Part shown: piece after piece, positions 20-11,387 of the stretch
Layout of the letters: the number at the start of each line of letters is the position of its first letter
Position numbering within the stretch: the stretch's first letter is position 1
From: Phycisphaera sp.
GTDB taxonomy: Bacteria > Planctomycetota > Phycisphaerae > Phycisphaerales > Phycisphaeraceae
Reading direction: 5' to 3'
Assembly: GCA_016125215.1 (NCBI GenBank)
Contig: WGMF01000049.1
Location: 1-37,071, forward strand
Length of the DNA: 37,071 bases
The notes under the pieces: generated by a model
Told to the model about the DNA's origin: nothing
The model's database searches: none
What the model saw: only the letters and a program-made list of their open reading frames with translations
Made by a program: the position numbers and the translations under genes

Positions 20-1889
20 GTTGCAGATTGGTCGCGGGGCGGGGTCGGTTACACTCATGGAAATCACCCCCTCTGCCAAGTCGGTGTTGCAGATTGGTCG
101 CGGGGCGGGGTCGGTTACACTAGAACTTCCGTGGCAGGTCGAAGGCGCGAGTTGCAGATTGGTCGCGGGGCGGGGTCGGTTACACTCTACGCTCGTCATC
201 CCGATGGAACTCCCGAGTTGCAGATTGGTCGCGGGGCGGGGTCGGTTACACTATGCAGTGTGCTCCAGGACGCCGCCCACGGTTGCAGATTGGTCGCGGG
301 GCGGGGTCGGTTACACTTGCATTTCTGTCTTTTCGTGACAAGGACTGTTGCAGATTGGTCGCGGGGCGGGGTCGGTTACACTGGTCCCGACGTGCTCAAT
401 TCGATCCGTCATGTTGCAGATTGGTCGCGGGGCGGGGTCGGTTACACTCAATTCTTCAACTAAAGATTCTTTGGGATGTTGCAGATTGGTCGCGGGGCGG
501 GGTCGGTTACACTAGATGGTGTCGTTAGCCTGCGTGTTGGGGGTTGCAGATTGGTCGCGGGGCGGGGTCGGTTACACTTTTTTTTTCGTGGACGTTGACC
601 AGAGGCAGTTGCAGATTGGTCGCGGGGCGGGGTCGGTTACACTGACCAGAGGCACGACCCGAAGTTGCACAAGTTGCAGGTTGGTCGCGGGGCGGGGTCG
701 GTTACACTCGTCGTCCACAGCACCCGCGATGTCACGTTGTTGCAGATTGGTCGCGGGGCGGGGTCGGTTACACTGATCACGCAGTCATGGTGTATGAGAA
801 AGAGTTGCAGATTGGTCGCGGGGCGGGGTCGGTTACACTTCCATGCTCTCGATGTATTCTCGATGTTCGGTTGCAGATTGGTCGCGGGGCGGGGTCGGTT
901 ACACTGAAATCCAGAGCAGATAGCGCCAGGCGTGCGTTGCAGATTGGTCGCGGGGCGGGGTCGGTTACACTGCCAGTGGGCGCGGCTGGGCTACCTCGGC
1001 AGTTGCAGATTGGTCGCGGGGCGGGGTCGGTTACACTCACCGCCTCTTGGCCTCTGATACGGGACAGTTGCAGATTGGTCGCGGGGCGGGGTCGGTTACA
1101 CTTTGCGTGATGTTGCCATACATGTCTGTTTGTTGCAGATTGGTCGCGGGGCGGGGTCGGTTACACTCTGAATCCGCGCCCACCGCTTGCCAATGCTGTT
1201 GCAGATTGGTCGCGGGGCGGGGTCGGTTACACTAAACCGTATACAGTTGTATTGCCCTCCGCAGTTGCAGATTGGTCGCGGGGCGGGGTCGGTTACACTC
1301 ACCACGCCGCCGACCGGACACCCGGCGAGTTGCAGATTGGTCGCGGGGCGGGGTCGGTTACACTCGTATGCGGGGTGGGGTCTAAGGTCGATACGTTGCA
1401 GATTGGTCGCGGGGCGGGGTCGGTTACACTAATCTTCGCGCGGCTTCGCTCGCACGGATGTTGCAGATTGGTCGCGGGGCGGGGTCGGTTACACTGAACA
1501 TCGCATCTCCCGACGGTGTGATGCTGTTGCAGATTGGTCGCGGGGCGGGGTCGGTTACACTATGAGCCAACAGGCAGTAACGCGACTCTAGTTGCAGATT
1601 GGTCGCGGGGCGGGGTCGGTTACACTGTTCTGAAGATGGCGGTTGTCGCGGATATGTTGCAGATTGGTCGCGGGGCGGGGTCGGTTACACTCCTTGTCGA
1701 CCAGCCCGACCGCCTGATCGGGTTGCAGATTGGTCGCGGGGCGGGGTCGGTTACACTCACTCTGGCCACGGATCGGTGAGACTATGGGTTGCAGATTGGT
1801 CGCGGGGCGGGGTCGGTTACACTCAAGTCCGACGCCTTCTTCGCGGCGATCCGGTTGCAGATTGGTCGCGGGGCGGGGTCGGTTACACT
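20..1889 (+). CRISPR. Type II-C-like CRISPR array, 29 repeats and 28 spacers, truncated at the left edge
   Basis: The repeat is 36 bp. It begins GTTGCAGATTGG, has a G-rich middle and ends TCGGTTACACT. Repeat starts are 20, 86, 151, 217, 282, 347, 413, 478, 543, 608, 673, 739, 804, 870, 936, 1002, 1067, 1132, 1198, 1264, 1329, 1395, 1460, 1526, 1591, 1656, 1722, 1788 and 1854. All are identical except the one at 673, which has G for A at repeat position 8. Spacers are 29 or 30 nt and all differ; spacer 9 (579-607) and spacer 10 (644-672) share an 11-nt overlap. Bases 1-19 look like part of another spacer, so the array continues to the left. The tracrRNA at 7347-7451 is complementary to the plus-strand repeat, so crRNAs are read on the plus strand, towards cas2. 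The last repeat (1854-1889) is not degenerate. Confidence 0.99.
1656..1691 (+). promoter_or_regulatory. Promoter inside the CRISPR repeat (one example of 29)
   Basis: Every repeat carries a -35-like TTGGTC at repeat positions 9-14 and a -10-like TACACT at positions 31-36, separated by 16 bp. Transcription from such a promoter would start inside the following spacer. Neisseria meningitidis type II-C repeats are known to end in a TACAAT -10 box that starts each crRNA separately, so the placement here matches a known mechanism. The same boxes and spacing occur before cas9 (7297-7324). Function is inferred from sequence and family precedent. Confidence 0.55.
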
Positions 1890-1939: not shown

Positions 1940-2269
1940 TTAAAAAAGCTCCAGTTGGGACGGTGGTGGTTCGGGGGGTTTGCGTCTTTTTCCCCAGAAG
2001 ACGCGCATGCGTGCGAACTGTTTGTCGGTGATGGTGAGTACTCTCACTTCGCCGTCGTCGGGGACGCTGTTCTGTACACGGGTGGTGTGGATGAGGGCGT
2101 TTTCCTCGCTGGCGCAGTGTCGGATGTAGACCGAGAACTGCATCCGGGCAAAGCCGTCCTGAATGAGTTTCTTGCGGAACTGGGCGTAGGCACGGCGTGC
2201 CTTCTTGGTATCGACGGGGAGGTCGAACATCGTCACTACCCACATACATCGGTACCCGGAGAGATACAT
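1940..2269 (-). CDS. cas2: CRISPR-associated endonuclease Cas2
   Basis: The 109-residue product has the Cas2 ferredoxin-like start, with YRCMW followed by VVTMFDLP. Asp16 is the conserved first-strand acidic residue. Cas2 bridges two Cas1 dimers in the spacer integrase. The gene is the last of the cas9-cas1-cas2 operon, 6 bp after cas1. The ATG at 2269 is preferred over the internal Met9 because type II Cas2 proteins usually keep the segment just before the YRxMW motif. After the fold the chain ends in a proline-rich linker and SQLELF, which resembles the sliding-clamp-binding consensus QL(S/D)LF. The length is typical for Cas2. Confidence 0.95.
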   Translation of the reverse strand: MYLSGYRCMWVVTMFDLPVDTKKARRAYAQFRKKLIQDGFARMQFSVYIRHCASEENALIHTTRVQNSVPDDGEVRVLTITDKQFARMRVFWGKRRKPPEPPPSQLELF

Positions 2270-2275
2270 GGTTGT

Positions 2276-3199
2276 TCACCGTTCGTCCTCCAATGGTATC
2301 GGCAGTTCGAGTGCGGCATCTTGGTTCTGATAACAACGTGTTAGAGATGCGGTGACACGGTGCAGACCGACCATCAACGGCCCGGTCTGATCGCCCACGG
2401 TCACGGTGTCGGACAGGACGTGGAGCAGGTGTGCCTTGGCGGGTTGGTCGATGGTGCGGGTGCCCGAATCGAGCAAGTGCAGCGCACGACGATCGACCAT
2501 TGGTCGGATGGGTTCGACCAGGTCGTCAGCGAGACAGAAGGCGTTAGCGCGGTTGTGGTGGTGGATGCCCAAGGCCGGATGCAGACCTGCCGAGACCAGG
2601 GCACGTGCGACTGCGGCGCGTGCGACGGCGTAGCCGTAGTTAAGGAGAATATTGGCGATGTCGGTGCCCTCGGGGTTTCGCTTGAAGTTGCTCATGGGCT
2701 TGCGTGTGGCTCGGAGGGCGGCCCAATAGACACGGGCAGCCTGGGCTTCGGTGTTGGCCGTGTCACCTGATTTGACTTCTCTTCCAAGCACGGTGAGTTT
2801 ACGGCGCGCGGGCGAGTCTTTGAGAATGTTCAGGGCCTGGTTGGCGATTTTGGCACGGACGATCTGTTGCCAGAGTCGTTTAAGTGTCGGCTTCTTGACG
2901 GCAATCTGCTCTTGTAGGCGGTGGACCTGTTCGACGTTTGCGGAGAGTGGGAGCAGTACACCGGCGGGCAGGTGGTCGCGCCCGCAGATCACCAGCAACG
3001 CGCCGTGTCGGAGCAACGCCTCGGCAGCGCCTTGTGTGAATGAGCAGCGGGGTTCATCGACGATGACGTAGCCGATGTCCTCGCAGGGGATGGATCGGGC
3101 GGCGTCCTTGGGTTCGTCGTAGGGTTGAACAATCAACTGGTCCAGTCTCGCGGAGAGCAGGACGGGTTGGCGTGAGATTTCGATCGTTCGTTTAATCAC
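2276..3199 (-). CDS. cas1: CRISPR-associated integrase Cas1
   Basis: The 307-residue product is a type II Cas1, the metal-dependent integrase that inserts protospacers at the array. The active-site pattern is visible: Glu151 in GDTANTEAQAA, the His cluster 213-215 in GIHHHNRAN, and Asp225-Asp226 in LADDLVEPIRP. Translation starts at a GTG whose bases overlap the cas9 stop by 8 nt (3192-3199), so cas9 and cas1 are translationally coupled. Size and motif spacing are normal. No csn2 or cas4 lies in the operon, which, with cas2 next, fits subtype II-C. Confidence 0.96.
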   Translation of the reverse strand: MIKRTIEISRQPVLLSARLDQLIVQPYDEPKDAARSIPCEDIGYVIVDEPRCSFTQGAAEALLRHGALLVICGRDHLPAGVLLPLSANVEQVHRLQEQIAVKKPTLKRLWQQIVRAKIANQALNILKDSPARRKLTVLGREVKSGDTANTEAQAARVYWAALRATRKPMSNFKRNPEGTDIANILLNYGYAVARAAVARALVSAGLHPALGIHHHNRANAFCLADDLVEPIRPMVDRRALHLLDSGTRTIDQPAKAHLLHVLSDTVTVGDQTGPLMVGLHRVTASLTRCYQNQDAALELPIPLEDER

Positions 3200-6100
3200 G
3201 TTCGAGCACCGTGGCCTGGCCGAGCGGGTCCACGTGGATTTTCACGGCGTGGGGGTGTCCTGGCGGCGCGAGGGTGGTCAGGTCGTTGGGCGTGGCGGTG
3301 AAGCTGTCGCGTTTGGAGTCGGGGACTTTGTTGCCTTCTGAATCCTTTCGTTCGCCGGCCGCGCGGGCGTCCCAATGGGGAACGAGGACGATCCCTTGTG
3401 GCTTGTCAAGTTTGGCGACCACGAAGTACCCGACTTCGCCGGCGTCTTTGTGTTTCATCAAGAGCGTCTCACCCTCACTGAGGCTCATGACGAAGCGGCC
3501 GCCTTTGGCGTCGTCGTCGTTGCGGTCGACGATGGGGTGGTCCTGTTCGATCCGGCGCAGGGTGGGCGTGAGTTTGGCGCGGTCGGCCTTAGTGAGTTTC
3601 TTAAACTCGACGGGCTTGGGGATGTTGGCCTTACGGAACTCGCGGAGCTTGGCGAGCTTTCGCTGGGCGGCCTCGAAGGTGGTGACAATCTGGCCGGACC
3701 ATTTTTCAACGCCCTTTTTGTTCTTGGCCACTCGTATCTCGATGTGGTGGTTGTTACCACCGACGTAAGCGCGTTGGGAGGTGGGGTTGGTGTCGCGGAC
3801 CAATCGGCCCGTTTCGTGGTCGGGGCGTTTGCGGTTGATGATGACCGGATCACTCATGACTCGGATCAGTACAACGGACTTAATGGGCACACCGGAGGCC
3901 TGGCAAAACTTGCCTGCCTCAAAGAGTTTCTTAACTTGGCTGGAGGTGAACTTATCGGGGTCCATCCCTGCCTCTTCGATGCATTGACGCAGGCGTTTGC
4001 GGAGATCGGGGTCACGCACCAAGCCACTCTTGCCGGGCGGGGGATCGATCATCAAGGGCTTGAATCCGGGTGATGCGACGGTGGCCTTGGCCCACTTGCG
4101 TGCGGACTTATCATCGATCCCTTGAGACCTGATCCTGCGTTTGGTCAGCCGCTCGACCGCTTGTTTTTCGGTTTCCGGACGCGGGCATTCGAGGTGGTTG
4201 GGGTCGAGGTTGAGCACGCTCTTTCGAGCGGTGTAGTTCCCGGTGAGTTGGCCCTGCTCGTCGAGGATCGGGCCGAAGAGGGTCTCCTCGTGGAGTGCGC
4301 CGGTGAGCTTTCGTTTGGCTGGGCGGTGACAGATGGGGCGGCCCGGCTGGCCCTGGCCAAAGATCGATTTCCGGACTGCTTCGCGGAACTCGTCCCGGCT
4401 GTTGTATTGCGGAGGTGGGGAGAGGGGGTTACGTCGCCGATAGTTTTCCATCTCCACCTCATCAGCGGGGTTGGTGAGTTGCTTGTCGGCTTTCTTCTCG
4501 CGGTCCTCCCAGGCGATCTGTGTATTGCGAGTGGACAAAGCGATGACGACGGCGTCGATCGCGTGGTGGTGGTGGTCGCCGCGGTTTTTTTCTTTGCGCT
4601 CGTGCTCCTGTTCGTTGGACAAGCCCTTGGACTTGAAGCCGTGCGGGTCGAAGAACAACCCCCACTCCCGCCGGAGCCGGCTGGTCCACATCCCGTCCGT
4701 GGCAAAGATACGACGCTTGTTGTCCCCACCTTCGGACGGACCGGTGCTCCGCTCGGGCAAACCTTTGCCGTCGAAGAGGGCGTCGGCGAGGTAGGCCATG
4801 ACCTGGCGCGAGGCGTACTTGGTCACGGCCTCCTGGCGGTTGGTCATCTCTTGAATGTCTTTGATGTCTTTCTTGAACTGGTTGATTTTTCCGTGGTCTT
4901 CCCGTTGTGTGAAATAACAAGACCACAGTGCGTCACCGTTGGCGTTCTTGATCTCCGAAGGCTTGGGGCGTTGGATGTCACCATAGATGCCCTCGACGTG
5001 ACGCAGGCTCTCATCGAAACCCCCCTTGAAGAGTTGTGACCAGAACTCGCGTGGGGTTCGTCTGCCCATTTCGCGGTTGCACTTGGTGTGCGCGAGAACG
5101 ATGTTGCCCAGTCCGTTGTGACCGCCACTGGCACGGGGGATGATGTGGGCGATCTCACAGTCCTCGCCGTGGGCGGCCATGCGTGAGGTCAACCGGGTGT
5201 TGACTACCTGGTTGCCGCACAACGGGCACACGCCGTTTTGTTGGATACAGAGCACGACACGGTCGACGGCTGCGCGTTGCTGGGTCGTGGTATGAGATTC
5301 CAGGTCGAGCTCGCGGAGGATGTCGTTGCGGATGCGGTTGCGCAGGCGGTTCTTGAAGAGCAGTCGGTCAGAATCCTTTGCGCCCATCCGCGCTTCACGT
5401 GCCAGCTCGATGTATACCTCGTCGGGCTTGCGACCAAAGCGAGTCATGTACGCCACCACATGTCGCCGGACTTCGTGGATGGCTTTACGCACTACGGGGT
5501 TGCTGACCATCGGTGCCGGCGGAGGCTCGGCCAGAGGAAGGCCGTCGGGTCCATAGATCGGCTCACCGTCTTTCGTGAGCAGGTGCTGGCGCATGTAGTA
5601 ACGGTCACGGGCTGTGGCACCCTTGGCACCGGTGGCGTAACGCCGACGAGTCAGCTCGTCGAACTCTTGACCGTTGGTGACATCCTTGAAGACGCCATCC
5701 CCGGCGATGAGCTTGCGGGACTCGATCTCCGTGAGCCACTTGGATTGCCCTTCGCGTTTGGAGTCGAGCCAGGGTTCGGGGCTGTCCATGACCGTGAGCA
5801 GGTTGCGGACGGCTCGCCTGCTGATGTTTAAGCGCTTGGCGTCGGTTTTGGGGCGTCTTGTCCAGACGGCCACGAGGGCGTCGGCCTGTTGCTCGGTCAG
5901 CCCCGCCCAGGACATCACACCGTACTTGAGCTTGAGGTGATGCGCGTCGTCCTCCGGCTCGAACTTCAAAATGGCGCGGTTGATCCCTTCGCGTATCCGG
6001 CCGTCCATCCGATCCCACGCCTCGACGCCGATTGCGCCGTGGACGATCTCACGGTTGAACCAGTCGGTGTTGATCAGTCGGTCTTTGTCGGCTTCGATAT

Positions 6101-7253
6101 TGAAACGCAACGGAGAAGACTTGGTGGCCTTGCCCCAACGCATAAAGTTCCGAAGATCGGTCACACTCACGGTGGCCTTGGGGCGTGGGACGGGTTCTTC
6201 TTTCTGCCCCTTGGATTTCCTGGGTTTCTCAAGCCCCAACGGCCCGCTGAGATAGGTCTTGATCTTCTCTCGCTCCTCGGGGGTCAAGGCTCGCGCCTCT
6301 TTGCCTTTCTCGATGATCTTCAGGTTGTTCACCGTCTCGACCACCAGGAAGCGCGAGGCGTACATGTCGGCGTGGGGCACGCAGCGCTCCGTCGGGTGAA
6401 GCACACATCGCCCAAGCGTGCCCAGGTCCCACGTCTGTCGGCGTTGGCCGAAGAGCAAGCCTTTGTGCCGCCACGTCGCGTCGCCCGATTCATCGTCGAG
6501 CTTGAGGCGCAACGTATCGGTGAGAAGCGCGGCTGTCGGACCGCCCAGGTTTTTCTGGGCACTCCAGAGTTTGGCGAACTCGTCACGGATCATCGATCGA
6601 TCGGCGCAGTGTTCATAACCGCCTGATTTGTTTCGCACCGCGTCACGGAACACACGCTTACCTTTGCGCTCCAATGGGCGACGCTGGTCCGGGGTTTCGA
6701 TGGGGTGGACGCGCTCATCCCGAATCATCGCGATGAACTCACCAAAGGTCCGGGCATTTTTATGGAGCATCTTCGATCGGACCTCACCGATCGCCGCCTT
6801 GACCTTGCCGTCGTCCGCCGCCTTGCTGTCATCCGCTTCCGGGTCATCGGGGTTGGCAATCTTCAACCCCAGCGCGCCACGCCTCTGCGACAGGTGCAGC
6901 AGCACACGACCGAACTCGTAGGGTGTGAGTGCTTCGTAGAGTCCCTTGCGACGCAGCGCCCACGGGTCGGTCGAGTCCAGCAAGGACTTAAACCCCGCTT
7001 CATCCGACGGGAGCAGGCCAGCCTCGACCAGCGCACTTCGCAGTAGATGCTTTCGCTGTGCACGCCGGGCGAGTGTGATGCGGGTCCGTCGAGTCATCCT
7101 GCGTTTGGCGTTCTTAGGCTCACCCCGCTTGTCATCCGACTCATCCACACCAGCGGGGAATATGGAGATACCCGTTGTCAGATCGCCGGTCGCTGAATCA
7201 AGCCACGCGGAGCCTACGGAATTGGACCCGATATCTAAACCAAGCGTGATCAT
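3192..7253 (-). CDS. cas9: CRISPR-associated endonuclease Cas9, large II-C-like form
   Basis: This 1353-residue protein is an RNA-guided DNA endonuclease. RuvC-I holds Asp7 (LGLDIGSNSVG), followed by an arginine-rich bridge helix at about 50-70 (RRMTRRTRITLARRAQRK). RuvC-II has Glu616 (VYIELARE). The HNH domain is a zinc-type form, with CPLC at 676-679, catalytic His703 in EIAHIIPRASGG, Asn717 and a HTKCN motif at 722-726. RuvC-III has His897 and Asp900 in HHAIDA. Ala702 occupies the place just before the catalytic His where Asp is usual (SpCas9 Asp839). Most II-C Cas9 proteins are about 1000-1100 residues, so this one is long. The extra length lies in the REC region (about 70-600) and in the roughly 450 residues after RuvC-III, which should hold the PAM-interacting domain. 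A GGAGG ribosome site precedes the ATG by 6 nt. Confidence 0.97.
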   Translation of the reverse strand: MITLGLDIGSNSVGSAWLDSATGDLTTGISIFPAGVDESDDKRGEPKNAKRRMTRRTRITLARRAQRKHLLRSALVEAGLLPSDEAGFKSLLDSTDPWALRRKGLYEALTPYEFGRVLLHLSQRRGALGLKIANPDDPEADDSKAADDGKVKAAIGEVRSKMLHKNARTFGEFIAMIRDERVHPIETPDQRRPLERKGKRVFRDAVRNKSGGYEHCADRSMIRDEFAKLWSAQKNLGGPTAALLTDTLRLKLDDESGDATWRHKGLLFGQRRQTWDLGTLGRCVLHPTERCVPHADMYASRFLVVETVNNLKIIEKGKEARALTPEEREKIKTYLSGPLGLEKPRKSKGQKEEPVPRPKATVSVTDLRNFMRWGKATKSSPLRFNIEADKDRLINTDWFNREIVHGAIGVEAWDRMDGRIREGINRAILKFEPEDDAHHLKLKYGVMSWAGLTEQQADALVAVWTRRPKTDAKRLNISRRAVRNLLTVMDSPEPWLDSKREGQSKWLTEIESRKLIAGDGVFKDVTNGQEFDELTRRRYATGAKGATARDRYYMRQHLLTKDGEPIYGPDGLPLAEPPPAPMVSNPVVRKAIHEVRRHVVAYMTRFGRKPDEVYIELAREARMGAKDSDRLLFKNRLRNRIRNDILRELDLESHTTTQQRAAVDRVVLCIQQNGVCPLCGNQVVNTRLTSRMAAHGEDCEIAHIIPRASGGHNGLGNIVLAHTKCNREMGRRTPREFWSQLFKGGFDESLRHVEGIYGDIQRPKPSEIKNANGDALWSCYFTQREDHGKINQFKKDIKDIQEMTNRQEAVTKYASRQVMAYLADALFDGKGLPERSTGPSEGGDNKRRIFATDGMWTSRLRREWGLFFDPHGFKSKGLSNEQEHERKEKNRGDHHHHAIDAVVIALSTRNTQIAWEDREKKADKQLTNPADEVEMENYRRRNPLSPPPQYNSRDEFREAVRKSIFGQGQPGRPICHRPAKRKLTGALHEETLFGPILDEQGQLTGNYTARKSVLNLDPNHLECPRPETEKQAVERLTKRRIRSQGIDDKSARKWAKATVASPGFKPLMIDPPPGKSGLVRDPDLRKRLRQCIEEAGMDPDKFTSSQVKKLFEAGKFCQASGVPIKSVVLIRVMSDPVIINRKRPDHETGRLVRDTNPTSQRAYVGGNNHHIEIRVAKNKKGVEKWSGQIVTTFEAAQRKLAKLREFRKANIPKPVEFKKLTKADRAKLTPTLRRIEQDHPIVDRNDDDAKGGRFVMSLSEGETLLMKHKDAGEVGYFVVAKLDKPQGIVLVPHWDARAAGERKDSEGNKVPDSKRDSFTATPNDLTTLAPPGHPHAVKIHVDPLGQATVLERD

Positions 7254-7296
7254 CCGAACCTCCGGAACAAAGGGTTAGAAATGATGCAAAGACCAT

Positions 7297-7324
7297 AGTG
7301 TATTGAGAATACTTGACAGAGCAA
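7297..7324 (-). promoter_or_regulatory. Putative cas operon promoter
   Basis: Read on the minus strand, TTGCTC (7319-7324) and TACACT (7297-7302) are separated by 16 bp. A start near 7290 would give a leader of about 37 nt before cas9. The -10 is identical to that of the CRISPR repeat, the -35 differs by one base and the spacing is the same. Its -35 abuts the -35 of the tracrRNA promoter on the other strand (7313-7318), so the two promoters probably compete for polymerase. Confidence 0.55.
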
Positions 7325-7340
7325 TCAGGAGGTGTAAGAC
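7313..7340 (+). promoter_or_regulatory. Putative tracrRNA promoter
   Basis: A perfect -35 TTGACA (7313-7318) is followed after 16 bp by TAAGAC (7335-7340), a weak -10. The predicted start is about 7347, one base before the anti-repeat begins, so promoter and RNA agree. The promoter overlaps the divergent cas9 promoter. Confidence 0.6.
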
Positions 7341-7346
7341 TGTGGG

Positions 7347-7451
7347 CGTGTAACCGACCCCGCCTCGCGCTTTTCCGCAACAAGAGAAAATCGCAGGCAC
7401 CGCTGAAAAGCGACCGCCGCAGCACGCACAAACGTCCTGCGGCTCTTTTTT
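7347..7451 (+). ncRNA. tracrRNA
   Basis: The anti-repeat (7348-7381) begins GTGTAACCGACCCCGCC, a 17-base perfect complement of repeat positions 19-35. One G-U pair and four more pairs follow, then an internal bulge, then GCAAC, which pairs with the first five repeat bases. This gives the lower stem, bulge and upper stem seen in other crRNA-tracrRNA duplexes, with the upper stem as the expected RNase III site. Downstream is a hairpin with a GAAA loop (7401-7412). A terminator follows, GCCGCAG (7416-7422) with CTGCGGC (7437-7443) and a T-run. About 105 nt is a normal II-C size. The terminator fixes the strand and therefore the direction of the array. Confidence 0.92.
7416..7451 (+). terminator. 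Rho-independent terminator of the tracrRNA
   Basis: A 7-bp GC stem (7416-7422 with 7437-7443) is extended by ACG/CGT after a C-C mismatch. TCTTTTTT follows (7444-7451). The T-run overlaps the stop codon of the convergent nuclease gene (7450-7452 on the minus strand). Confidence 0.85.
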
Positions 7452-8451
7452 AGATTGGGGTCGTCACACTTCCGACGAACGCTGGGCACTGCCCCTTGAA
7501 CGGGCACGTCGAGCACATCATGGGCGAGGGCGCCGCGTAGTCGTGGCCGGCCTTGATGGCGGACCACACCTGGCGGACGTTCTCTGTCAGCACCGTCGCC
7601 TCCTGGTCAGCACCATGCGCGGATGACGCACTCGCATGGGGCACGTCGAGCACCTGCACCACCGGCGACTTGGCCTTGGTCACCACCACAAAGTGCAACG
7701 ACACCGGCAGGCTCAATCCCCGCGCCATCCGTTGGACGGTCCGCGCATACAGACGAAGCTGCTCCGCGTTCTCCACCGCCTTGTCCGGCGTCCACCGCGA
7801 TCGGCTCGTCTTCCAATCGACCACGTGCAAGCTTCCGGGTGTCCGCGTCACCAGGTCTACTCTTGCCAACACGTCGGGCAGGTCCTCTGCCAACGTCGTG
7901 GTCAGCTCCTCCTCGATGCCCACAATCTCCCCGTGCGGCTGCGACGCGGCGGACCCCCGGAAGGCGCCGAGCATGCGCTGGGCCAACTCGACCACGTCGG
8001 ACATCGACTCGTTCTTGTTGAACTTCACAGCCACCCCCGGAAGCTTTTCACACTGGAGCTGCCAGGCGGCCATGAAGGCGTGCATCAGGTCGCCCTCCCC
8101 TGTGGGTAAGCCTTCGAGCAGCCTGCGGAAGTACATCTCCATTGCGGCGTGGATCGCACCGCCAAAGACCAGGCTCACCGGCTGGAACTCGGGCTGGGCC
8201 TTCTCGACGTAGACAAACGCAAACTTCCGGGGACACCCCCGGAAGGTGGAGAGTTGGGAGTGGGAGACGTAGGGCCGACCGGTAAGACGCATGGCCTGCT
8301 CGTTGGCCTCTCTGACCGGCGTGGACGCCCTCTGCGCCCCCCGCGCGGGGCGGGAGGGGGTGTTGGGTGGGGTGGCGACGGGGTGCTGCAGCGCGCGCTT
8401 AGACGTGTTTACGGACGATCGGCGCTTCGCGCCGGTGTGGGTGCGGGTCAT
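7450..8451 (-). CDS. PD-(D/E)XK nuclease, RecB/Cas4-like, with predicted Fe-S cluster
   Basis: The product has 333 residues from an ATG at 8451 that has GGAG 8 nt upstream; the reading frame is open further upstream but lacks a better ribosome site. After a basic low-complexity tail (1-60), the nuclease fold shows His101 (GGAIHAAME), Glu180, Asp199 (ARVDLV), Asp212-x-Lys214 (VVDWKTS) and Gln231 (AEQLRLYA). One Cys in FRGCPRKF (73) and a C-terminal CxxCx5C (313, 316, 322) form the four-cysteine pattern of AddB and Cas4 proteins. It should be a metal-dependent DNA exonuclease. It runs convergent to the tracrRNA, with its stop inside the tracrRNA terminator. It could be a phage-type recombination exonuclease or could trim prespacers like Cas4; only the domain call is firm. 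Confidence 0.88.
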   Translation of the reverse strand: MTRTHTGAKRRSSVNTSKRALQHPVATPPNTPSRPARGAQRASTPVREANEQAMRLTGRPYVSHSQLSTFRGCPRKFAFVYVEKAQPEFQPVSLVFGGAIHAAMEMYFRRLLEGLPTGEGDLMHAFMAAWQLQCEKLPGVAVKFNKNESMSDVVELAQRMLGAFRGSAASQPHGEIVGIEEELTTTLAEDLPDVLARVDLVTRTPGSLHVVDWKTSRSRWTPDKAVENAEQLRLYARTVQRMARGLSLPVSLHFVVVTKAKSPVVQVLDVPHASASSAHGADQEATVLTENVRQVWSAIKAGHDYAAPSPMMCSTCPFKGQCPAFVGSVTTPI

Positions 8452-8476
8452 GGGGGGATCTCCGTGGTATGGGGTT

Positions 8477-8587
8477 GAATTGGAAAGTTCCAATTCACCA
8501 CGACCGGACCGTTCCGGCCGTGGTGAGAAGGGATGGGGGGATGGGATCAAGTCAGCCACGCGGGGGAGGCGTTAGGAATTTCCTAAC
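8477..8587. promoter_or_regulatory. Cluster of three inverted repeats upstream of the nuclease gene
   Basis: Three palindromes lie between the nuclease gene and the upstream gene. They are GAATTGGAA/TTCCAATTC (8477-8496, 2-bp centre), a long imperfect stem from CACCACG to CGTGGTG (8496-8525) and GTTAGGAA/TTCCTAAC (8571-8587, 1-bp centre). All share a GGAA-centre-TTCC or GGA-centre-TTCC core. They could be repeated operator sites for one dimeric regulator, or RNA hairpins in the transcript. Confidence 0.5.
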
Positions 8588-9712: not shown

Positions 9713-11149
9713 CTAAACCCCGGGCTTGGTGGCGGCTTGTGCCTGCTCGGGTGCCGTGGGCAAAAGGATGGGCTTGAACTTTTTCTCCATCTCATCCAAC
9801 GCACGGTCGAGGGAAGCTGTGGGGATCAGGGCCGGGTCGTTGCTCACGTAGTAACTCGCGGTCCTGCTGTCGCGGTGTGAGAGGTAAAGATCGGTCAGGG
9901 CAAGGTCGATGGGCGAGCTGGACTTGCCGATCTCCTCGATGAACTGGGCGCCCGTGTCGCGCAGCTGCGAGAAGACCGCCTTGACCTTGGCCCTTTTGGC
10001 GAGCTTCGAAAAGAAGGTACCGATACGATCACGGTCGGCGGTGTTCAGGGGTGTGCCCATAGCCGTGACGAAGAGACGCTCCCGGTTATCCCGATTCACA
10101 TCGTCCAGTGCGGCGTGGATAAGGTCGGCGGTGATCTTCCAGAGCTTGTGCTTGCTGGGGACATCGGTCTTTTCCCGTCGTTTGGCGATGTACCCCGGCG
10201 CCACCTCCAGGTCTTTGGGTTTAAGGTCGCTGATGTCTTTCGAGTAGTACCCGCAGTTGAGCCCCAGCGCGATCCAGCACCTCATGCGGTTGTCCGCCAG
10301 ACTCCACAACTTCTTGACCACTTCCAGCGACAATGGCTTGCCCGAGCGTGCCACCGGGACCTTGCTGCCGATCTCATCCATGTTGCGCGGCTGCTCGACG
10401 ATCTTGCGTTTGCTGTAGGCCCACTTGATGAAAGGCTTGAGGTGTTTGAGCTTGTCGTTAAAGGTGTGGGCGCTGTATTCCTCGGCGCCGAGTTTCTGTT
10501 CGAGATACCTGCGGTAGCCATCCAGAATGGTTTCGGTGTGCTGGGCGTCGCCCCAGTCTTCCTGGCCGGCGAAGGCTTTGAAGGTGCTCATGCCGTTCTG
10601 CATGCCCTTGTAGCCCCGGTCGCCCAGCGCCCGCTTGCTGTGACCCGTGGACGAGGCAGACACCTCGACACGGCGTTTCTGGTCTTCGAGGTATTCCACG
10701 ACCGTTGCGGCGATCGAACCCTTGGCGATCTGCGGAGCCACGCGACGGGGCTTTTGGAGCGGCTTGGCGCCTAAGACATACTCGATCGGGGACCTGCCCA
10801 ACAACAGGTCTTCGAGGGTGCCGGCTTGTTGGGCCTCGGCGATCTCGTCCCACAGCTGCTTGCCCTTGAGTTGATCGAGGTGGCCGTCGGGATCGTGGCT
10901 GGCTGCTTGTTCTTTAGCGAGGCGGTAGAGCCTGTTGCGCAACGCCACGGTATTGGCCCGGTCTTCCTGTTGGGCGGCGAGGTCGTCCATGTAGGCGCGG
11001 TATTTCCTGCGGGCCCTGTTATAGCTGGCCGTGTCTCCAGCGTTTTTGCCGCTGCCGAAGTAGAAGGTCTTGCCGTCGATCACTTTCTTCCAACGCTTGC
11101 TTGGCTTGTGGAAAGAGAGCTCGAGGCCGGTGGTGGAGGGGCGAGCCAT
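9713..11149 (-). CDS. Divergent tyrosine recombinase (integrase)
   Basis: The product has 478 residues from the ATG at 11149. That start has GGAG 7 nt upstream and lies about 20 nt after the start predicted from a promoter at 11176-11204; the longer frame to 11194 would begin inside the promoter. The N-terminal half looks like arm and core-binding domains. The catalytic domain shows box I ALGLNCGYYSKDISDL (294-309), box II QLRDTGAQ with Arg397, and LSHRDSRTASYY with His425 and Tyr433/434. The box I Arg is absent and the box II His position is Ser394. Similar departures occur in planctomycete integrases, from memory. It sits next to the 3' end of a tRNA-Arg gene, the usual place for an element integrase, and probably moves the island to its left. 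Confidence 0.85.
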   Translation of the reverse strand: MARPSTTGLELSFHKPSKRWKKVIDGKTFYFGSGKNAGDTASYNRARRKYRAYMDDLAAQQEDRANTVALRNRLYRLAKEQAASHDPDGHLDQLKGKQLWDEIAEAQQAGTLEDLLLGRSPIEYVLGAKPLQKPRRVAPQIAKGSIAATVVEYLEDQKRRVEVSASSTGHSKRALGDRGYKGMQNGMSTFKAFAGQEDWGDAQHTETILDGYRRYLEQKLGAEEYSAHTFNDKLKHLKPFIKWAYSKRKIVEQPRNMDEIGSKVPVARSGKPLSLEVVKKLWSLADNRMRCWIALGLNCGYYSKDISDLKPKDLEVAPGYIAKRREKTDVPSKHKLWKITADLIHAALDDVNRDNRERLFVTAMGTPLNTADRDRIGTFFSKLAKRAKVKAVFSQLRDTGAQFIEEIGKSSSPIDLALTDLYLSHRDSRTASYYVSNDPALIPTASLDRALDEMEKKFKPILLPTAPEQAQAATKPGV

Positions 11150-11175
11150 GAGGGGTCTCCGGAAGAGGTCCCCAT

Positions 11176-11204
11176 GGTTTACACCCGCCGGCAATAAAGG
11201 TCAA
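11176..11204 (-). promoter_or_regulatory. Putative recombinase promoter
   Basis: On the minus strand, TTGACC (11199-11204) and TAAACC (11176-11181) are 17 bp apart. This predicts a start near 11169 and a short leader to the ATG at 11149. Confidence 0.5.
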
Positions 11205-11313: not shown

Positions 11314-11387
11314 TACCCCCGAGAGGACTCGAACCTCTGACCTGCCGCTTAGAAGGCGGCTGCTCTATCCAACTGAGCTACGGGGGC
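11314..11387 (-). tRNA. tRNA-Arg (anticodon UCU)
   Basis: The minus strand gives a full 74-nt cloverleaf. The acceptor stem is GCCCCCG with CGGGGGT, the D arm contains GCTCAGTTGGATAGAGC, and the anticodon stem GCCGC/GCGGC has loop CTTCTAA, so the anticodon is TCT. The T arm contains GGTTCGAGTCC. The discriminator is A and CCA is not encoded. The 3' end faces the recombinase gene about 165 bp away, making it a likely attachment site. Confidence 0.96.

What the first reader, a model, noticed from the sequence alone, without database searches (positions are those of the whole stretch)
1940..7253. Type II-C-like locus built around an unusually long Cas9 with a zinc-type HNH domain
The operon cas9-cas1-cas2 without cas4 or csn2 is II-C in form, but this Cas9 has 1353 residues against about 1000-1100 for most known II-C enzymes. 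The additions are in the REC region and in roughly 450 residues after RuvC-III. The HNH domain has CPLC and HTKCN zinc-ligand motifs, closer to free-standing HNH enzymes and actinobacterial Cas9 than to Neisseria-type Cas9. It may represent a separate lineage with a different PAM-binding domain.
Basis: partly seen in the sequence, partly recalled or inferred. Interest (0 to 1): 0.7.

Follow-up and report, generated by a model that had tools for sequence, protein, structure and literature searches.

The report
Cas9 lineage with altered HNH scissors
A complete bacterial CRISPR-Cas9 defence locus carries an unusually long Cas9 from a lineage in which two normally essential residues of one of the enzyme's two DNA-cutting sites have been replaced, so it may cut only one strand or cut the second by different chemistry.

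Summary
A cas9-cas1-cas2 operon (window 7253 to 1940, minus strand) encodes a 1353-residue Cas9 beside a 29-repeat array; I added a tracrRNA (7348-7451, plus strand).

Form, Cas1 and tree are type II-C. The Cas9 belongs to a separate long lineage (36 of 36 rows in one clade), found only in the window's class in my samples. Predicted folds still match II-C enzymes (Nme1Cas9, CbCas9), so a novel PAM-binding fold is not supported; no PAM could be derived.

The zinc-type HNH is real but not special: some ordinary II-C Cas9s of the class have it too. The unusual feature is the HNH active site. In 21 of 21 members of the window's sub-lineage the metal-binding Asp (SpCas9 D839) is Ala and the invariant Lys (K866) is Met; the general-base His and the Asn are kept, and RuvC is intact. 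None of 19 sister Cas9s or 36 control loci has the Ala. HNH is constrained like the rest of the protein.

Best reading: a working II-C system whose HNH was remodelled (0.5). Main rival: a natural nickase (0.35). An in vitro strand-cleavage assay decides.

The parts
20..1889 (+). CRISPR array, 29 repeats of 36 nt (28 identical, one with 1 mismatch), 28 unique spacers of 29-30 nt; crRNA sense is the + strand, opposite to the cas operon; cut by the contig start
1940..2269 (-). cas2, 109 aa
2276..3199 (-). cas1, 307 aa (GTG start; overlaps the end of cas9)
3192..7253 (-). cas9, 1353 aa; RuvC catalytic residues D7, E616, H897, D900 present
4974..5333 (-). HNH region (Cas9 residues 641-760), with zinc-ligand motifs C676-C679 and H722-C725
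5148..5150 (-). codon for Ala702 at the position of the HNH metal-ligand Asp (SpCas9 D839, AnaCas9 D581)
5067..5069 (-). codon for Met729 at the position of the invariant HNH Lys (SpCas9 K866, AnaCas9 K609)
5145..5147 (-). codon for His703, the general base (SpCas9 H840), kept in 21 of 21
5076..5078 (-). codon for Asn726 (SpCas9 N863), kept in 21 of 21
7348..7451 (+). tracrRNA: anti-repeat, nexus-like hairpin, 3' hairpin followed by a T run; antisense to and upstream of cas9
   Evidence: the simple promoter and terminator scan listed nothing here

Best explanation
A complete type II-C CRISPR-Cas9 immune locus. Cas1-Cas2 add spacers; the array and the tracrRNA, both on the plus strand, give a crRNA:tracrRNA guide; the long Cas9 binds target DNA by RNA-DNA pairing and RuvC cuts the non-target strand. 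In this sub-lineage of Phycisphaerales and kin the HNH active site has been remodelled: the metal-ligand Asp is Ala and the conserved Lys is Met, while the general-base His, the Asn and the zinc ribbon stay. Most likely HNH still cuts the target strand, with a metal site that does without the Asp, perhaps more slowly. Shown: gene content, guide RNA, residue changes, conservation. Inferred: all catalysis. The II-C identity itself I hold at about 0.95; the stated confidence is for the whole statement with a still-active HNH.
For: Operon, array and tracrRNA. RuvC residues are intact in every row where they are covered. The general-base His and the Asn are kept in 21 of 21 Ala members, including the long-branched L049, which also shares the Ala and the Met; a dead site would not need this. 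In 7 of 7 pairs the pN of HNH lies within the range of the other six regions. Mean identity within the Ala group is 0.63 for HNH and 0.63 for RuvC-III. Arrays are in good repair: 194 of 198 spacers unique within their arrays in 14 Ala-type loci, counting repeat copies with at least 30 of 36 matches. Precedent: in the 12 best of 26 free-standing HNH_2 matches of relatives, 10 have Ser and 2 Ala, none Asp, before the catalytic His; one of them, from the window's own genome, matches a solved HNH endonuclease with Ser there (6yex).
Against: D839A 'substantially compromised' SpCas9 editing, and the Lys is called invariant in II-A and II-C (PMC6706240, passages). No carboxylate unique to the Ala group appears in HNH to replace the Asp: the group-specific HNH columns are Leu678, Cys699, Ala702 and Met729, and a Cys at that place is also found in AnaCas9. 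HNH is less conserved than RuvC-II (pN higher in 7 of 7 pairs). No metal-site geometry could be measured; the HNH loop 708-715 is under pLDDT 50. No protospacer was found, so targeting is inferred.
Confidence: 0.5

Rival explanations
1. Natural nickase: HNH has lost target-strand cleavage and is kept as a structural and conformational gate; RuvC nicks the non-target strand, and immunity comes from nicking plus a stable R-loop, or from host processing of the nick.
For: Two residues held to be needed for HNH catalysis are both replaced in 21 of 21 members (PMC6706240 passages). The Ala occurs in 0 of 19 sister Cas9s and 0 of 36 control loci. Match to the Cas9-type HNH_4 model is 63 and 42 bits in the two sisters scanned (L043, L058) and 26, 25 and 17 in the three Ala members scanned (window, L036, L049).
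Against: General-base His and the Asn are invariant and HNH is about as constrained as the other regions. No second nuclease is conserved beside these loci: the PD-(D/E)XK gene next to the window's cas9 has no match in the 20 other Ala-type stretches read (19 genomes; some stretches are too short to show that neighbour).
Confidence: 0.35
2. An ordinary II-C Cas9 in function: the changes at 702 and 729 are neutral because another residue supplies the metal ligand, so chemistry is as in NmeCas9.
For: Fold, guide RNA and operon are ordinary II-C. The position is not fixed to Asp elsewhere: 24 of 36 controls have Glu.
Against: No substituting acid is conserved in the group. The 36 controls have only Asp or Glu, never a non-ligand, and keep the Lys.
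Confidence: 0.1
3. Decaying or artefactual gene: the replacements come from sequencing error or loss of function.
For: One of the 21 genes (L116/L092, draft genome) is broken into three frames.
Against: The same residues occur in 21 genomes; the 18 Ala-type rows put in the tree form one group; pN and pS show constraint; arrays are in good repair.
Confidence: 0.03

Closest known systems
Ordinary type II-C Cas9 systems of the same class (e.g. L032, L063, L066)
   Same: cas9-cas1-cas2 order, Cas1 family, 36-nt repeats where an array was read, some with zinc-type HNH
   Different: Cas9 1015-1161 aa (10 rows) instead of 1314-1441; all keep Asp or Glu, and Lys, in HNH
CbCas9 (PcrIIC1-associated long II-C Cas9, PDB 8wmm, 8iyq)
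   Same: long (1442 aa), II-C; top structural match of the C-terminal half (Z 11.9, rmsd 6.1, 353 aligned)
   Different: 17% identity over the aligned part; presence of a PcrIIC1-like partner here was not tested; Bacteroidota origin and HNH residues of CbCas9 not looked at here
Nme1Cas9 / HpaCas9 (II-C)
   Same: top structural match of the N-terminal half (6jdq, Z 18.3, 554 aligned)
   Different: Nme1Cas9 is about 270 residues shorter; its HNH has the Asp and the Lys (alignments)
AceCas9 and AnaCas9 (actinobacterial II-C with zinc-type HNH)
   Same: best Cas9 matches of the HNH region in the PDB; AnaCas9 shares a Cys four residues before the catalytic His
   Different: both have Asp before His and Lys three residues after Asn
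II-C2 phage Cas9 with inactivated RuvC (PMC12669027, passages)
   Same: a natural Cas9 in which one nuclease site is altered
   Different: mirror image: there RuvC is inactivated and HNH apparently active
II-D / Cas9d (PMC9755519, passages)
   Same: zinc-finger motif in HNH
   Different: compact; the window scores 118 bits against a cut-off of 375; its loci carry cas4 (PMC12669027 passages)

Membership tests
Type II CRISPR-Cas (Cas9) | Cas9 matching the curated model | tested here: met
   TIGR01865, 375 bits, cut-off 100
Type II CRISPR-Cas (Cas9) | tracrRNA with anti-repeat to the locus's repeat | tested here: met
   7348-7451 (+); duplex -61.3 kcal/mol against a mean of -25.6 and minimum of -40.0 in 200 shuffles; 19 pairs, 9 with double changes, in 21 sequences
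Type II-C | cas9-cas1-cas2 without csn2 or cas4 | tested here: met
   window operon; same three genes in order, where the contig is long enough, in the Ala-type stretches read. Caveats: a PD-(D/E)XK gene (Pfam PDDEXK_1) lies beyond the tracrRNA, and the far array end on C47 was read only as ORFs
Type II-C | Cas9 branches with II-C Cas9s and away from II-A | tested here: met
   quick ML tree of 83 rows rooted on one II-A Cas9 (Listeria, csn2 present): the 36 clade rows form one group, SH-aLRT 100. Only one II-A and no II-B row were available, so the test is thin; the subtype of the other rows was not established one by one
Type II-D (Cas9d) | Cas9d model score over cut-off | tested here: not met
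   NF049971 118.5 bits, cut-off 375
Active HNH of Cas9 | Asp-His-Asn triad (SpCas9 D839-H840-N863) and conserved Lys | tested here: not met
   His and Asn present, Asp->Ala and Lys->Met in 21 of 21; definition from PMC6706240 passages
Active RuvC of Cas9 | D10, E762, H983, D986 equivalents (SpCas9 numbers recalled) | tested here: met
   D7, E616, H897, D900 in all rows of 40 where covered
Natural nickase | cuts one strand only | not testable with these tools
   needs a cleavage assay
Separate PAM-interacting fold | C-terminal domain unlike known Cas9 PI domains | tested here: inconclusive
   C half matches known II-C Cas9s (Z 11.9), but loosely; the PI domain was not folded alone

The most novel reading that the evidence does not exclude
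A vertically maintained lineage of natural Cas9 nickases: HNH no longer cuts the target strand, and adaptive immunity in these bacteria works by RuvC nicking of the non-target strand plus R-loop blockade, the cellular counterpart of engineered HNH-dead Cas9.
Probability: 0.35. Interest if true: 0.82.

Novelty: new variant of a known kind. Interest (0 to 1): 0.6.

Why it matters
HNH catalysis in Cas9 is described as needing Asp, His, Asn and a basic residue. A whole natural lineage that lost the Asp and the Lys but keeps His, Asn and the domain under selection makes a direct test possible: either the required set is smaller than thought, or nicking is enough for CRISPR immunity. Either answer informs Cas9 mechanism and nickase design. 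The lineage also shows that II-C Cas9 can exceed 1300 residues while keeping II-C guide RNA and fold.

Tried and rejected
PAM from spacers: window and L039 arrays against phage records (no match at E<=1 for the window; six weak hits at E 0.9 for L039); window array against 251 genomes of the order (30 genomes match; the strong hits, by length and 64-78% identity, look like other arrays; neither these nor the weak short ones were checked one by one); three 3'-end spacer patterns in IMG/VR (0 each). Only 1 of the 14 arrays went to and 2 of 14 to the phages. No PAM claimed.

Accessory gene: the PD-(D/E)XK gene upstream of cas9 was tested as a partner and rejected; no match in the other Ala-type stretches. 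Other neighbours were not compared.

HNH taken over from the free-standing HNH proteins of the class: the two read (L034, L035) have Asp before His, so no support. HNH_2 proteins have Ser or Ala there but a different third motif.

A stand-alone C-terminal Cas9 piece in G354 looked interesting; the reading frame runs through stretches that read N, so I set it aside.

Cys699 as a replacement ligand: AnaCas9 has a Cys at the same place together with its Asp, so not specific.

Close relatives: none in viral contigs; in phage records one partial Cas9 match, in plasmids 50 records with partial matches of distant Cas9s; the single genome-contig scan gave L002.

Prior description: searches (listings) showed me no paper on this lineage or on a natural HNH-altered Cas9. 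Supplementary tables could not be read, so earlier inclusion in large Cas9 surveys (e.g. the MG subgroups of PMC10278012, passages; PMC7606464, passages) is not excluded.

Full report
What is there. On the minus strand lie cas9 (3192-7253, 1353 aa), cas1 (2276-3199) and cas2 (1940-2269), followed by a CRISPR array (20-1889, 29 repeats of 36 nt, 28 unique spacers). Curated models confirm all three genes. The window is a whole contig (G000:C43) that begins inside the array; four further copies of the repeat, the first cut by the contig end, and then a degenerate repeat-like stretch (my reading), lie at the start of contig C47 of the same genome. The genome is kin, at order level in the tool's scheme, to G332; contig G332:C58 has the same length (63,174 bases) as the record of L002, titled a Phycisphaerales MAG. 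I therefore write of Phycisphaerales and of their class.

Guide RNA. Upstream of cas9 and in the opposite sense is a tracrRNA, 7348-7451 (+). Its anti-repeat pairs with the repeat over nearly its full length (-61.3 kcal/mol; 200 shuffles: mean -25.6, minimum -40.0). Of 26 loci of the lineage examined, 25 have an anti-repeat upstream of cas9 (14-17 of 17 positions); L048 has not (11 of 17), in L111 the element is cut by the stretch read, and L049 has a diverged 3' part. In 21 aligned sequences (L049, L117 and L118 of the 24 listed left out) RNAalifold gives 19 pairs, 9 with changes on both sides that keep the pair. Array and tracrRNA thus share one strand, opposite to the cas operon, which is a II-C layout (recalled). 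A consensus promoter and terminator scan of 7240-7500 found nothing.

Lineage. Searches with the window Cas9 found 73 of 397 genomes of the class with some match at E<=1e-10; 27 of them hold a long-lineage Cas9 by my reading of the rows. In the order, 22 of 400 genomes match at E<=1e-130, 19 of them of the window's Ala type. In the phylum sample, 4 of 392 match at E<=1e-100, all in the same class. I aligned 40 lineage members; four partial rows (L009, L010, L018, L092) were left out of the trees. With the HNH columns removed, the 36 remaining rows form one clade (SH-aLRT 100) in a 53-row tree and again in an 83-row tree rooted on a II-A Cas9 (six rows dropped beforehand: L141 and L164 as duplicates, L161 and L165 as partial, ordL069 and ordL070 as long-branched). 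Only one II-A and no II-B reference could be had. Lengths: 1314-1441 aa in the window's sub-lineage (18 rows), 1155-1374 in its sisters (18 rows), 1015-1161 in ordinary Cas9s of the class (10 rows) (some start codons are uncertain). Cas1 proteins of ordinary loci of the class match the window's Cas1 about as well as those of the long lineage do.

Shape. AlphaFold2 models of residues 1-760 (mean pLDDT 83.1) and 745-1353 (84.5) match II-C Cas9s: the N half best Nme1Cas9 6jdq (Z 18.3, 554 aligned), the C half best CbCas9 8wmm (Z 11.9, rmsd 6.1, 353 aligned; by Foldseek GeoCas9). So the extra length enlarges known domains; no different PAM-domain fold is shown. CbCas9 at 1442 aa also shows that long II-C Cas9s are known.

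HNH. The zinc-ligand motif is real (C676, C679, H722, C725). It is present in all 21 members of the window's sub-lineage, in 5 of 19 sisters (L043, L044, L052, L058, L093), and in 4 of 12 ordinary rows of the class (ordL063, ordL064, ordL066, ordL068). It is therefore not the mark of this lineage. What marks it: Ala702 in place of the metal-ligand Asp (SpCas9 D839, AnaCas9 D581) and Met729 in place of the invariant Lys (SpCas9 K866, AnaCas9 K609), together with Leu678 and Cys699, each in 21 of 21 members. The residue match to AnaCas9 comes; the SpCas9 match is mine by motif, and equates AnaCas9 K609 with K866. Sisters: Asp in 18, Glu in 1, and Lys in 19 of 19. Controls: 30 Planctomycetota loci and 6 plasmid loci; Asp in 12 and Glu in 24 of 36; Lys in 35 of 36 by column and, in the Listeria row where the alignment slips, by eye. 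Two controls repeat loci already used: L141 (= L068) and L164 (= the sister L061). One control, L135, has Lys in place of the HNH Asn. The general base His703 and Asn726 stay in 21 of 21, and RuvC residues D7, E616, H897 and D900 stay in every row of 40 where covered. The Ala group is one side of a branch (SH-aLRT 95, 80; without the long-branched L049, 95 and 96).

Is HNH decaying? I see no sign of it. In 7 of 7 pairs its non-synonymous rate lies within the range of the other six regions, though above RuvC-II each time; mean identity within the group is 0.63, equal to RuvC-III and below RuvC-II at 0.73. Arrays of 14 loci are in repair: 194 of 198 spacers are unique within their arrays. That count takes repeat copies with at least 30 of 36 matches; a looser k-mer count gave more copies in L042 (43 against 38) and L116 (13 against 9), so some degenerate copies may have been missed. 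One of 21 genes is broken (L116).

What it does. The literature I read (passages of PMC6706240) gives the SpCas9 triad as D839-H840-N863, reports that D839A substantially compromised editing, and calls the Lys invariant in II-A and II-C. By that standard this HNH should be weak or dead. Against that, His and Asn are kept over long divergence, and other HNH enzymes lack the Asp: of 26 HNH_2 matches in 17 of 61 related genomes I read the best 12, and all 12 have Ser (10) or Ala (2) there; one matches a solved HNH endonuclease with Ser there (6yex; I did not read whether it is active). I put 0.5 on a remodelled but active HNH, 0.35 on a natural nickase, 0.1 on ordinary function by an unseen substitute, 0.03 on artefact.

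Novelty. The nearest published natural counterpart seen is II-C2, a phage Cas9 with inactivated RuvC (PMC12669027, passages). I call this a new variant of a known kind.

Noticed in passing
window 7450-8559 (-): PD-(D/E)XK nuclease family gene (PF12705, 105.8 bits), with a Cys-rich end, directly beyond the tracrRNA; no match in the related cas9 stretches read.
   Followed up: partly
window 9713-11194 (-) and 11314-11387 (-): A weak phage-integrase match next to a tRNA-Arg gene suggests that the CRISPR locus sits at the edge of a genomic island.
   Followed up: no
L129 (G000:C47) 1-260: Probably the other end of the window's array: four repeat copies, then a degenerate repeat-like stretch.
   Followed up: partly
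G039: contigs C136, C96, C49 (L037, L145): One genome holds three cas9 loci, one long Ala-type and two that match the general Cas9 model.
   Followed up: no
L135, Novosphingobium sp. ES2-1 plasmid: A plasmid Cas9 with Lys at the position of the HNH Asn (SpCas9 N863).
   Followed up: no
L067 793-4035 and L059 4557-5510: An ordinary cas9 and a cas1 that are each split into two open frames by one in-frame stop.
   Followed up: no
L069, L070: A very divergent Cas9 (1184-1216 aa) in the class, next to cas2, with cas1 on the opposite strand.
   Followed up: no
L163 (G814, 1358 aa) and G841:C1 (1408 aa open frame): Other long Cas9 frames in the phylum, outside the class; L163 has an ordinary HNH and branches away from the window's lineage.
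   Followed up: partly
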